Assembly: GCA_015229005.1 (NCBI GenBank)
Contig: JADGCL010000019.1
Coordinates: 1-44,261, forward strand
Length of the DNA: 44,261 bases
Origin: Magnetococcales bacterium
Lineage (GTDB): Bacteria; Pseudomonadota; Magnetococcia; Magnetococcales; JADGCL01
Direction of reading: 5' to 3'
A program made the position numbers and the translations under genes. The notes beneath the pieces were generated by a model. It searched no databases, had not been told where the DNA came from, and was given only the letters and a program-made list of their open reading frames with translations. Positions 1-40,392 of the stretch are shown here, piece after piece. How positions within the stretch are numbered: position 1 is the first letter of the stretch; each line of letters starts with the position of its first letter.

Positions 1-53
1 GAATTTGGCCGGCCATCCCTGGCCGGCGCAGCCCGTTTATCAACGGGCTGCTA
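1..53 (-). repeat. Dispersed hairpin repeat, fragment at window edge
   Basis: Contains the palindrome GCCCGTT-TATC-AACGGGC and a GGCCGGCCATCCCTGGCCGG tract. On the minus strand it begins TAGCAGCCCGTTGATAAACG, the end motif of a repeat family seen again near 12.5, 34.1 and 40.4 kb. It matches the right half of the 157-bp copy at 34030-34186. The TAG at 51-53 is also the stop codon of the HD-GYP gene. The copy may continue beyond the window. Confidence 0.7.
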
Positions 54-1124
54 CCGAGGTTCCGCCAATTCCCGATGGATAGCGAGGAGTTCGGGCAGGA
101 TCCCGGTGAACACTTCGACCAGGTCGGGATCGAACTGCCGTCCCGACTCCCGGCGAATCTCCGCCACCGCCCGTTCCACCGGCCAAGCCTCCTTGTAGGG
201 ACGCCTCGCCAGGAGCGCATCGAACACATCGGCCAGGGTCGTGATCCGGGCCAGAAGGGGAATCCCAACCCCCGAAAGTCCCTGCGGATAGCCACCGCCA
301 TCCCACCGCTCGTGATGCGTCAGGGCGATCAGGCGCGCCACTTCCAGGAGATCGGAATCGTTGCCCGACAGGAGTTCGGCGCCGATAGTCGTATGGGTCT
401 TCATGATCGCCCACTCCTCCGGGTCCAGCTTCCCCGGCTTCAGGAGGACGCGATCGGGGATCCCGAGCTTGCCCACATCGTGCATCGGACTGGCATTCAG
501 GAGGGTATCGCATTCGCCATCCCGAAGCCCCGCCGCCCGCCCGATCCGTTCCGCCCACTGGCTCATCCGCAGGATGTGCAGCCCCGTCTCGTTGTCCCGG
601 TATTCCGAGGCCCTCCCCAAACGCCGGATCACCTCCAGGCGGGTCTGGTGCAGCTCCCGGGTCCGTTCCCAGACCCGCTCTTCCAATACCTGATTCCGCC
701 GCTTGACCTCGTTGTGCAGGAGGCGAACCTCGAGCATGTTGTAGATGCGGGAGAGAAACTCGATCCGATCAAAGGGCTTGCTGATGAAATCCTTGGCCCC
801 CGCCTCCAGCGCCTTGACCCGGGTCTCCCGATCGGTCTGGGCGGTGAGAACCAGGACCGGAATATAGCGGTCGCCCTCGACCGCCTTCAGCTCCTCCATC
901 ACCTGGAAGCCGTCCATCCCGGGCATGCGGATATCCAGCAGCACAAGGTCGAACCCGCTTTCCCGGTAGAGAAGCACCGCCTCCCGGGGATCGTCGACCC
1001 CCCGAACATCGACATAACCCGCCTGACGGAGCATCCGCTCCATCAGCTTGAGGTTGGCGGCCTGATCATCCACGACCAGGATGCGGGCCTCTCTCATCTC
1101 TCCGGCAAGTGGCGTGATTTCCAC
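51..1124 (-). CDS. Two-component response regulator with HD-GYP cyclic-di-GMP phosphodiesterase domain
   Basis: A 357-residue RpfG-like protein. The N-terminal receiver domain (about residues 13-130) has the acidic pair VVDDQ, the phospho-acceptor region LVLLDIRMPGMDGF and the conserved Lys in FISKPFD. A short helical linker (about 135-160) leads to an HD-GYP domain (about 165-340) with HDVGKLGIPD and HHERWDGGGYPQGLSG. Proteins of this family hydrolyse cyclic di-GMP when phosphorylated. The chosen start is GTG: GAGGAGG lies 8 bases upstream, inside the last codons of lolD, so the gene is probably translationally coupled to it. An internal ATG at 1097 has poorer spacing. No partner histidine kinase is visible in the window. 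The stop codon TAG falls on the end of a dispersed repeat. Confidence 0.93.
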   Translation of the reverse strand: MEITPLAGEMREARILVVDDQAANLKLMERMLRQAGYVDVRGVDDPREAVLLYRESGFDLVLLDIRMPGMDGFQVMEELKAVEGDRYIPVLVLTAQTDRETRVKALEAGAKDFISKPFDRIEFLSRIYNMLEVRLLHNEVKRRNQVLEERVWERTRELHQTRLEVIRRLGRASEYRDNETGLHILRMSQWAERIGRAAGLRDGECDTLLNASPMHDVGKLGIPDRVLLKPGKLDPEEWAIMKTHTTIGAELLSGNDSDLLEVARLIALTHHERWDGGGYPQGLSGVGIPLLARITTLADVFDALLARRPYKEAWPVERAVAEIRRESGRQFDPDLVEVFTGILPELLAIHRELAEPR

Positions 1125-33403: not shown

Positions 33404-33421
33404 GAGCATCGACCTCCTAGG

Positions 33422-33462
33422 GTTGAGAAAGTCCATGGATGGACTTTTTCGACAGTCTGCTA
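33422..33462 (-). repeat. Dispersed hairpin repeat, left-end fragment
   Basis: On the minus strand it begins TAGCAGACTGTCGAAAAAGT and folds as GTCGAAAAAGTCCAT/ATGGACTTTCTCAAC with almost no loop. It matches the left end of the 157-bp element at 34030-34186. The first three bases (33462-33460) are the TAG stop of the CopD-like gene. The element sits between that stop and the acetolactate synthase start. Confidence 0.85.
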
Positions 33463-33912
33463 CAGATAGCGACCGGACGAAGCCACGAATATCGTGACCA
33501 TTCCGAGGCCAAAATTGACGGCCACAAGCCGGCGAATGGCCATGAGATAAAGCCCAGCCTCGGGGATCAGTTCATGTTTGACCATATGCTGCAATCGACG
33601 AAATGGTACAAAATAGAGATAGCATAAAACAATGAACATTGCCCAGGCCAACAGGTGCATGACGTGGATGTAAGGTCCCACCGCGGAAAAACCGCCAAAA
33701 GCCGTATGGATCATGCCATATCCTGTCACCAACAGGGTTACGACAGCAACCCAGGCCCATGTCAGAAAACGGGACAATACCCGAAACCAAACAGCAACGC
33801 GCAAAGGAAGATCAACCGGGGCCGTCGCCGGCCCCAATACGAACAAGGAAAAGGCCATCCCCCCGATCCAAACAACGGCCGCCAGGAGATGCGTCGCAAT
33901 CAACAGGGGCAC
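33460..33912 (-). CDS. CopD-like four-helix membrane protein
   Basis: About 150 residues from GTG 33912, chosen because GGGAGG lies about 5 bases upstream and the protein then starts directly with a membrane helix (LLIATHLLAAVVWIGGMAFS). Four hydrophobic segments are seen, with His in IATHLL and in YIHVMHLLAWAMF, consistent with the CopD / conserved membrane-bound family related to copper uptake or haem-binding membrane proteins. The exact role is not clear. The longer in-frame start at 34053 lies in the MITE-like element and yields the repeat-derived MDFFNRL, so it is rejected. The stop codon is contributed by a repeat. Confidence 0.75.
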   Translation of the reverse strand: MPLLIATHLLAAVVWIGGMAFSLFVLGPATAPVDLPLRVAVWFRVLSRFLTWAWVAVVTLLVTGYGMIHTAFGGFSAVGPYIHVMHLLAWAMFIVLCYLYFVPFRRLQHMVKHELIPEAGLYLMAIRRLVAVNFGLGMVTIFVASSGRYL

Positions 33913-34029
33913 AAAGACCTCCCGGGGATAGACCCCAAAGTTTCCCAACCACCCGACGCGTGGAAAAGGATGGCATCTGTCCAGAACAATCCGAACACCA
34001 CACCAACGGTCTCCAAAACGGCGATCCCT

Positions 34030-34186
34030 TATCAGCCTGTTGAAAAAGTCCATGGACGAACTTTTTCAACCCGGAAAGGCAAAAACAAGTTTTGCCTTTC
34101 CTTCAAAATTCAAAGAGTTACACCGTCCCGTTGAATTTGACCGGCCATCCCTGGAAGGCTCTGCCCGTTTATCAACGGTCTGTTAT
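34030..34186 (+). mobile_element. MITE-like element, most complete copy (157 bp)
   Basis: The left end TATCAGCCTGTTGAAAAAGT and the right end, read inward as ATAACAGACCGTTGATAAAC, form imperfect terminal inverted repeats with core CAG-NC-YGTTGAWAAA. The left end also folds on itself (GTTGAAAAAGT/ACTTTTTCAAC, 34039-34070), the middle folds as GGAAAGGCAAAA/GTTTTGCCTTTCC, and the right end folds as GCCCGTT/AACGG. No ORF inside. Fragments of the same sequence occur at 1-53, 12287-12311, 12487-12545, 33422-33462, 34796-34906, 40355-40392 and possibly 41887-41927. Confidence 0.75.
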
Positions 34187-34276: not shown

Positions 34277-34738
34277 TCACTTGCGACCGGTCCATCCAAA
34301 AGTGTCTGAAAGCTCCAACGCCCCGGAATTTTCTCTGCCGACAAGACGATCGACGAGGACGGATATCAACTTGTCCTTGAGTTTATCTCGCAATTCGGGA
34401 TCAAGTGTCTGGAAGGCCTCCTTGCCAACACGCATGACAATGACCTCGCTATTGGCTATGACATCCGCGGTACGTGGCTTATTGGGAGCCAGGAAAGAAA
34501 CTTCACCAAAGACCTCCCCGGGCTGCAAAATGGCAAGAGGCTTCTTATCGCCACCAGCGACCGTTGCCGTCCCTTTGATCAGGAAAAACAAATGATTGTC
34601 AGTCTCTTTTTCCCGTATAATCAATGAGTGAATTTTGTATCGAAAAATTTTCAAATCCAATTCGGCAATCATGGCTTTCTCTTCGGCAGTCAATCCCCCG
34701 AAGAACCGGATCTGGTCAATGATGAGAAGCTTTTCCAT
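34277..34738 (-). CDS. Small cyclic-nucleotide-binding domain protein
   Basis: 153 residues from ATG 34738 (MEKLLIIDQIRFFGGLTAEE). It consists of one cNMP-binding domain: LIIREKETDNHLFFLIKGTA, then the cassette LQPGEVFGEVSFLAPNKPRT with Gly-Glu and Arg kept, then a C-terminal helix ending RLVGRENSGALEL. There is no DNA-binding domain, so it is not a CRP-type regulator; it may be a single-domain sensor or regulatory subunit. It resembles the cNMP domains of the 23655-25430 protein (shared FGEVSFL). The first 36 residues of the longer ORF derive from repeat sequence and are rejected. A truncated second copy of its 5' end lies at 36961-37057. Confidence 0.85.
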   Translation of the reverse strand: MEKLLIIDQIRFFGGLTAEEKAMIAELDLKIFRYKIHSLIIREKETDNHLFFLIKGTATVAGGDKKPLAILQPGEVFGEVSFLAPNKPRTADVIANSEVIVMRVGKEAFQTLDPELRDKLKDKLISVLVDRLVGRENSGALELSDTFGWTGRK

Positions 34739-34795
34739 CAATTCCGCCTTCGGCAAAGGTGAGTTTATTTCACAACATGCGGACCGGCGTCGACC

Positions 34796-34906
34796 AACAA
34801 AATTCAACGGGACAGAAAAACCCATTGAACTTGCAGGTGAAGACAAAACCGCGTGCTGCCTTCACGGGTAAAAAAGCCCACGGATGGACTTTTTCAACAG
34901 TCTGAC
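34796..34906 (-). repeat. MITE-like element, partial copy in opposite orientation
   Basis: The reverse complement starts CAGACTGTTGAAAAAGTCCA and runs to GTCCCGTTGAATTTT. It aligns through about 105 bases with 34033-34138. The right third of the element is missing. It sits between the HNH gene stop and the small cNMP gene, so two copies in inverted orientation bracket the cNMP gene. Confidence 0.75.
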
Positions 34907-36905: not shown

Positions 36906-36960
36906 TGGCTCCGACAGTCCCATAAGATCGGACAGAGTGGCAGACTCCGAACCTATTCCT

Positions 36961-37057
36961 CTCTTCGGCGATCGATCTCCCGAAGAACCGGATCTGGTCA
37001 ATGATGAGAAGCTTTTCCATCAATTCCGCCTTCGACAAAGGTGAGTTCATTTCAAAG
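36961..37057 (-). pseudogene. Truncated copy of the small cNMP-binding gene (5' end only)
   Basis: About 97 bases align without gaps to 34679-34775 in the same orientation, with only about a dozen differences. The fragment keeps the start codon (ATG at 37020) and MEKLLIIDQIRFFG, then breaks after about 20 codons, where the frame runs into unrelated sequence at the edge of the ATPase gene. The rest of the gene is absent, so this is a remnant rather than a functional gene. Confidence 0.85.
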
Positions 37058-37291
37058 CATGCCGACGGTGCCGCCCATGGCATTCAAGCCAGTCGGGTGA
37101 TCTCCCCATCTTCCCGAAACCGCCCCAGTGCAGGACGAGGGATTGTACCGCCGATCCGGCCAAACTCGCGAGGGCGCACGGTCAACGCAGCGAGTCACCA
37201 CCGGCATCTGCGAAGCATCTTCCATCGGCATTCAAGCTTCTTCGTCCGGACAAAGGGGGGGCTGATCGGAAAGATTCCGCTCCAGGAGGAC

Positions 37292-40354: not shown

Positions 40355-40392
40355 CCGGTTGGCAGCCCGTTGATAAACGGGCTGCTAACCGG
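40355..40392. terminator. Long palindrome between convergent genes (repeat-derived, possible bidirectional terminator)
   Basis: CCGGTTGGCAGCCCGTT-GATA-AACGGGCTGCTAACCGG forms a 17-bp stem with a single G/A difference and a 4-base loop. It is the right-end hairpin of the MITE-like family. It lies between the phosphatase stop and the ffh stop and contains the ffh TAG (40387-40385). No T run follows on either side, so terminator function is inferred from position only. Confidence 0.6.

What the first reader, a model, noticed from the sequence alone, without database searches (positions are those of the whole stretch)
40385..40387. Repeat ends supply the stop codons of three genes
The HD-GYP regulator (TAG 53-51), the CopD-like gene (TAG 33462-33460) and ffh (TAG 40387-40385) all terminate exactly at the TAG of the repeat's TAGCAG end motif, in the same orientation. 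Three independent coincidences suggest that the element inserts at, or is selected at, 3' ends and can redefine C-termini, or that it acts as a combined stop codon plus 3' hairpin module.
Basis: seen in the sequence. Interest (0 to 1): 0.55.

Follow-up and report, generated by a model that had tools for sequence, protein, structure and literature searches.

The report
Mobile repeats sitting on stop codons
A short gene-less mobile DNA element lands on the letters TA plus A or G and copies them on both sides, so it often sits exactly on a gene's own stop codon; the repeat only seems to supply the stop, and the protein's end is usually unchanged.

Summary
The coordinates are right: three genes stop at 53-51, 33462-33460 and 40387-40385, each at a TAGCAG end. 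But HD-GYP and ffh meet the element's left end, CopD its right end. The repeat is a MITE of about 150 bp with five hairpins. In 54 near-complete copies (38 here, 16 in relative G015) the flanks carry a 4-bp target-site duplication with a central TA: outer bases agree in 42 of 54 at each position, against 13.9 and 22.0 after shuffling. So TA(G/A) is duplicated host DNA and the element starts at CAG. TAR is also a stop codon; insertion there keeps the gene's stop. 13 of 60 read-into ends coincide with a stop (TAG 9, TAA 2, TGA 2). GyrB ends at the same residue in 22 of 22 relatives examined; CopD agrees within 2 residues, HD-GYP in the closest relatives; ffh is inconclusive. The excess over one third is real; over local TA supply it is weak (P 0.17 and 0.40 for full copies, 0.04 for all ends). 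Related ends occur in several phyla, four pairs around 1.3-1.5-kb IS5-type elements. Similar stop overlap is in print for REPs.

The parts
1..50 (-). Left part (hairpins 1 and 2) of an element copy, cut by the contig edge; behind the HD-GYP gene
51..54 (-). GTAG, target copy next to the left end; 53-51 is the TAG stop of the HD-GYP gene
   Evidence: sequence, ORF; the other copy lies beyond the contig edge
12490..12538 (+). Degraded left-end fragment (hairpins 1 and 2)
33421..33459 (-). Right-end relic (hairpin 5) behind the CopD gene
33460..33463 (-). GTAG, target copy next to the relic; 33462-33460 is the TAG stop of the CopD gene
34033..34182 (-). Only full-length copy of the element in the window (150 bp between the target copies)
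   Evidence: 86% to the query copy
34029..34032 (-). Target copy ATAA at the right end (TTAT on +)
34183..34186 (-). Target copy ATAA at the left end, identical to 34029-34032
34866..34904 (-). Second right-end relic (hairpin 5)
40363..40384 (-). Solo left-end palindrome between ffh and the convergent phosphatase gene; flanks CCGGTT/AACCGG extend the stem
40385..40388 (-). TTAG next to the palindrome; 40387-40385 is the TAG stop of ffh
   Evidence: no clear direct repeat on the other side (TTGG at 40359-40362 on +)

Best explanation
The repeat is a non-autonomous mobile element (a MITE of about 150 bp with ends CAGCCCGTTGA and CAGNCTGTTGAAAAAGTC and five hairpins in a row). It inserts at a 4-bp target with a central TA, most often N-TA-(A/G), and duplicates these four bases. 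TAA and TAG stop codons are such targets. An insertion there leaves the gene's stop whole in the duplicated copy, so it is tolerated even in essential genes, whereas insertions inside genes are lost. In a GC-rich genome with few TA dinucleotides the stop codon is the most TA-rich site where insertion does no harm, hence the spike. Shown: the copies, the duplication, the excess in the stop register, the unchanged GyrB end, the local TA supply. Inferred: loss of intragenic insertions by selection; mobilisation by an IS5-type transposase, which was seen between related ends in other bacteria but not found in this genome or in G015.
For: 4-bp duplication: positions 1 and 4 agree in 42 of 54 copies each, shuffled means 13.9 and 22.0, maxima 26 and 35 in 10,000 shuffles; no other length from 2 to 9 fits; 23 of 54 exact. 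Stops of all three kinds at the same place. hisS stop inside an exact TGAG duplication. GyrB end identical in 22 of 22 relatives. TA at the stop in 17 of 99 element-free genes but at 1.4% of each position 3-30 nt further; predicted share at the stop 30% here and 59% in G015, observed 6 of 13 (P = 0.17) and 5 of 7 (P = 0.40). IS5-type transposases between such ends: L268 and L195 over the NCBIfam IS5 cut-off, L175 with DUF772/DDE domains, L211 interrupted by a stop.
Against: No empty site in a close relative was available (the genome is the only one of its family among the 41 searched). With all ends, degraded ones included, 13 of 27 lie at the stop against 30% predicted (P = 0.04), and in the cross-phylum set the stop share outside genes is 16 of 91 against 145 of 2905 for other YTAR sites (P = 2e-5), so a bias to gene 3' ends beyond TA supply exists there, although within 60 nt of a stop it is not significant (16 of 29 against 145 of 350, P = 0.17). 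Strict YTAR holds for only 12 of 54 left copies (32 of 54 are NTAR). The central TA differs between the two copies more often than the outer bases would suggest; unexplained. ffh's palindrome has no clear direct repeat.
Confidence: 0.88

Rival explanations
1. The element brings its own TAG and thereby truncates or redefines the C-termini of genes it lands in.
For: Three genes in the window and 13 of 60 ends genome-wide stop at the end motif. One OmpA-like gene (L080) reads into the element and ends 11 nt inside it. Ffh ends in PFRAG here, in PF in at least five of 23 relatives.
Against: TAG is part of the duplicated target; TAA and TGA occur in its place; GyrB end identical in 22 of 22 relatives; CopD within 2 residues in 11 relatives and HD-GYP within 2 in four of 11, the three closest among them.
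Confidence: 0.04
2. The element is kept as a 3' module: its hairpins act as terminator, 3' stabiliser or ribosome-stalling structure, and copies directly behind stops are favoured for this.
For: Five strong hairpins, z = -12.35, kept in three families with rewritten stems. Left ends face gene 3' ends in 24 of 31 own copies with a called left neighbour. Cross-phylum 3' bias. In E. coli, REPs within 15 nt of a stop stall ribosomes (reported in passages of PMC12306157).
Against: In G015 only 5 of 15 left ends face a 3' end. Own copies show 85 broken against 36 one-sided and 23 two-sided kept pair changes, as expected of decay. Left sides prefer TAR (32 of 38 with intact TA, right sides 14 of 32), which explains the left bias.
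Confidence: 0.06
3. It is a GTAG-type REP moved by a RAYT, whose tag supplies TAG.
For: REP termini are reported to provide the TAG stop of flanking ORFs often (PMC3733652, section 15); solo 28-bp palindromes exist here.
Against: The base before TAG varies (left copies ATAG 9, GTAG 5, CTAG 5 of 54) and is repeated at the other end; the element has two inverted ends and a 4-bp duplication. A RAYT gene was not searched for.
Confidence: 0.02

Closest known systems
MITEPsy1 of Pseudomonas syringae (likely derived from ISPsy2)
   Same: Short MITE with a 4-nt duplication, CTAG or YTAA (PMC3189936, passages)
   Different: 100 nt, other terminal repeats (GGAAGGTCTGAAAAAGCC); no stop-codon coincidence in the passages seen
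IS5-family insertion sequences (NCBIfam NF033581 type)
   Same: YTAR target of IS5 in print (PMC10359306, passages); elements with the same ends as the MITE's right end carry such a transposase
   Different: The MITE has no gene, NTAR rather than strict YTAR, and its host genomes G000 and G015 show no such transposase
GTAG REPs
   Same: Palindromic repeats close to 3' ends; termini often provide the TAG stop (PMC3733652, section 15)
   Different: One-ended GTAG tag, no target duplication reported in the section read; here two inverted ends and a 4-bp duplication
ERIC / RU-1 and Correia elements
   Same: Hairpin-forming MITE-like repeats; RU-1 has TA at its ends and TA duplication and can lie at gene 3' ends (PMC2759123, passages; Correia from recall)
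   Different: TA duplication instead of 4 bp; the RU-1 case in the passages removes a normal stop rather than keeping it

Membership tests
MITE | Short, no open gene, inverted ends, multiple copies, target duplication | tested here: met
   150 bp, 40 places with E below 1e-28, ends and 4-bp duplication
IS5-type MITE | Ends shared with an IS5-family element | tested here: met
   Right end CAGNCTGTTGAAAAAGTC also bounds L175, L195, L211, L268; left end agrees over about 11 bases
IS5-type MITE | 4-bp duplication YTAR | tested here: inconclusive
   4 bp met; NTAR in 32 of 54 left copies, strict YTAR in 12 of 54
IS5-type MITE | Mobilised by an IS5-type transposase of the host | tested here: not met
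   No NF033581 match in G000 (78.6% complete) or G015 (99%); controls G041, G042 match. Past mobilisation stays possible; other transposase families were not searched except DDE_3
GTAG REP | GTAG tag at one end, single palindrome | tested here: not met
   GTAG in 5 of 54 left copies, five hairpins, two inverted ends
GTAG REP | RAYT (Y1 transposase) partner | not tested
   no search for it was made
IS630/Tc1-type MITE | 2-bp TA duplication and ends shared with a DDE_3 transposase | tested here: not met
   Duplication is 4 bp; the one DDE_3 element found has other ends

The most novel reading that the evidence does not exclude
The five-hairpin array is kept as RNA: the element spreads a structured 3' UTR whose loops 2 and 5 show ANGGA, the CsrA/Rsm-type binding motif, and so can plug genes, even essential ones, into a global regulator without touching their coding sequence.
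Probability: 0.05. Interest if true: 0.7.

Novelty: new member of a known kind. Interest (0 to 1): 0.33.

Why it matters
It gives a simple reason, target choice plus survival, for an oddity also reported for other palindromic repeats: repeat ends that double as stop codons. It warns annotators not to read such ends as evolved stop modules, and shows that a mobile element can settle on the stop of gyrB, clpP, nuoF or hisS without evident change to the protein (shown by orthologues for gyrB only). A MITE family whose five hairpins are kept in three families of one order while the stems are rewritten is a useful case for asking what secondary structure does for mobile elements or their hosts.

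Tried and rejected
TA-only duplication (IS630/Tc1 style) was my first model (note); dropped when the bases outside TA also matched. The DDE_3 element found for that model has other ends. Rfam: at gathering level only two tRNAs in the window; weak matches up to E = 5 for L034, L094 and L109 included TD-2 on the element at 28.8 bits, cut-off 48.7. Transposase of L268's kind: none in G000 (no positive control in that call, with controls). G018 has two genes over the IS5 cut-off, but the two fetched loci show no end of the wanted pattern.

Left-end bias as a sign of function: at stops 6 of 6 full copies here, 9 of 11 with G015 (two-sided P = 0.03 and 0.07); facing 3' ends 24 of 31 here but 5 of 15 in G015. 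Not general, and the left side's preference for TAR offers an explanation.

Two of the three genes ending 11 nt inside an end (right ends of L036 and L048) look like antisense artefacts of the codon model (my judgement). Four of the 13 stop sites (L014, L022, L029, L079) have short or weak repeat ends; they are not among the full copies. The hisS site (offset -1) was left out of the 6-of-13 test. In one search copies shorter than 130 aligned bases, with N, or cut by locus edges were dropped.

Literature: searches (no paper), listings seen; in parts read: PMC3733652 (passages, section 15), PMC2759123, PMC10359306, PMC3189936, PMC12306157 (passages only). Nothing in these describes MITEs with YTAR-type targets on stop codons; that is no proof of absence.

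Full report
Observation. They belong to a response regulator with an HD domain, a CopD protein and Ffh. The window is the whole contig C84 of a 3.28-Mb genome in 173 contigs, 78.6% complete; TAGCAGCCCGTTNA occurs at 25 places in it and its reversed control at none.

What the repeat is. Many inverted pairs of ends span 156 bases. BLAST with one 156-base copy finds 40 places with E below 1e-28, 38 of them over 140 bases long. That copy folds into five hairpins in a row, -97.4 kcal/mol against a mean of -50.4 for shuffles, z = -12.35. Of 40 relatives of the same order three had a match: G015 with 20 at 72-83% identity, G018 with one at 73%, and G032 with 26 bases. Consensus sequences of the own copies and of G015, and the single G018 copy, keep five hairpins with largely rewritten stems. 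Within the genome, 30 copies of equal length show 23 two-sided kept, 36 one-sided kept and 85 broken pair changes, so single copies seem to decay without strong structural selection.

Target-site duplication. For 54 near-complete copies (38 own, 16 G015) I compared the four bases before CAG with the four after the far end. Positions 1 and 4 agree in 42 of 54 each; shuffling the partners gives 13.9 and 22.0, at most 26 and 35 in 10,000 shuffles. The two central positions, mostly TA on both sides, agree in 37 and 42, no more than shuffling gives (34.5 and 38.1). Lengths 2, 3 and 5-9 show no such agreement; 23 of 54 are exact. Hence the TAG or TAA before CAG belongs to the host. L054 makes the point: TGAG stands on both sides, with the hisS stop TGA inside it. 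The central TA is often TG on the left or CA on the right; I cannot explain this. Left copies are NTAR in 32 of 54 and strict YTAR in 12 of 54.

Stops. A codon model trained on window genes and a simple gene caller give 60 ends, of 114 considered, with a gene reading towards them. The stop falls exactly on the end in 13: TAG 9, TAA 2, TGA 2; 12 are left ends. The genes include gyrB, clpP, nuoF, trmB and ffh (gyrB named from its sequence and orthologues). Among full copies it is 6 of 38 here and 5 of 16 in G015, there on both sides of the element.

C-termini. GyrB of 22 relatives ends at the very residue where the own protein ends, with TGA, TAA or TAG and no element behind (of 25 relatives searched, G014 had no match and G002 and G005 only a weak one). 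CopD ends within 2 residues in 11 relatives examined. Of 11 HD-GYP relatives four end within 2 residues, the three closest among them, and seven are longer (these are the best 12 loci, own included). Ffh tails vary among 23 relatives; at least five end in PF where the own protein has PFRAG, so ffh is open. One OmpA-like gene, L080, does read into the element and ends there.

Why stops. Of 99 element-free genes 17 end in TAA or TAG and 82 in TGA, so TA stands at the stop in 17%, while positions 3-30 nt on hold TA in 1.4% each. Use of TA sites in that stretch in proportion to their number predicts 30% at the stop; full copies show 6 of 13 (P = 0.17), all ends 13 of 27 (P = 0.04). In G015 59% is predicted and 5 of 7 seen (P = 0.40). 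With resolved ORFs the stop share outside genes is 16 of 91 against 145 of 2905 (P = 2e-5), but within 60 nt of a stop 16 of 29 against 145 of 350 (P = 0.17); 21 of 112 ends fell inside called ORFs. So there is a bias to gene 3' ends, by selection or insertion, and no firm preference for the stop beyond its TA.

Source of mobility. In one search's listing 22 of the 116 stretches pair the end with an inverted one and an exact 4-bp repeat. Four pairs enclose 1281-1532 bases, two with exact repeats and two with three of four bases. Their ORFs: L268 and L175 have DUF772 and DDE domains, L268 and L195 exceed the NCBIfam IS5 cut-off, L211 is interrupted by a stop. IS5's YTAR target is in print and so is a MITE with CTAG or YTAA duplications. 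G000 and G015 show no such transposase, so the link is inferred.

Known ground. [quoted passage not shown] The phenomenon is thus known for another repeat class; what this adds is the cause here, a duplicated target that contains the stop.

Most novel reading. Loop 2 reads CCANGGA: GGA is unchanged in 30 of 30 own copies while N varies (22 G, 5 A, 2 T, 1 C), and 15 of 15 G015 copies have ANGGA there. Loop 5 has ATGGA in 25 of 30 and 14 of 15. CsrA binds GGA motifs (start of the abstract of PMC4894983 in the listing; the ANGGA form in hairpin loops is recalled), and the genome has one csrA. Against it: 57 of 156 positions are invariant anyway, the orientation towards genes differs between the two genomes, the G018 copy has CAGGAAG in loop 2, and no binding data exist.

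Noticed in passing
34678-34784 and 36960-37066: A 107-bp direct repeat (92%): the start of the cyclic-nucleotide-binding gene (34277-34846, -) is found again as a fragment at the start of the AAA-ATPase ORF.
   Followed up: partly
34030-34053: The longest CopD ORF starts at an ATG inside the full element copy; relatives align only from about residue 3-17 of the shorter version, so the true start is probably further in.
   Followed up: partly
1-60; L018/L087 (C120), L016/L082 (C112), L088 (C85), L084 (C137), L023 (C150), L024 (C159): Several contigs end inside or next to element copies; C120 carries the same flank (CCGAGGTT) as the window start before a run of N, which suggests that the repeat breaks the assembly.
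   Followed up: no
L080:2534: An OmpA-like protein reads out of frame into a copy and takes its last residues (MAAR) from it: one real-looking change of a C-terminus.
   Followed up: no
54 full copies: The central TA of the target has often become TG on the left and CA on the right, mostly at the base next to the element; cause unknown.
   Followed up: partly
40363-40384; L013, L071, L075, L076, L082: Solo 28-bp palindromes of the left hairpin occur without the rest of the element; only L013 shows a near-direct repeat (GTAG/GCAG) in its flanks.
   Followed up: partly
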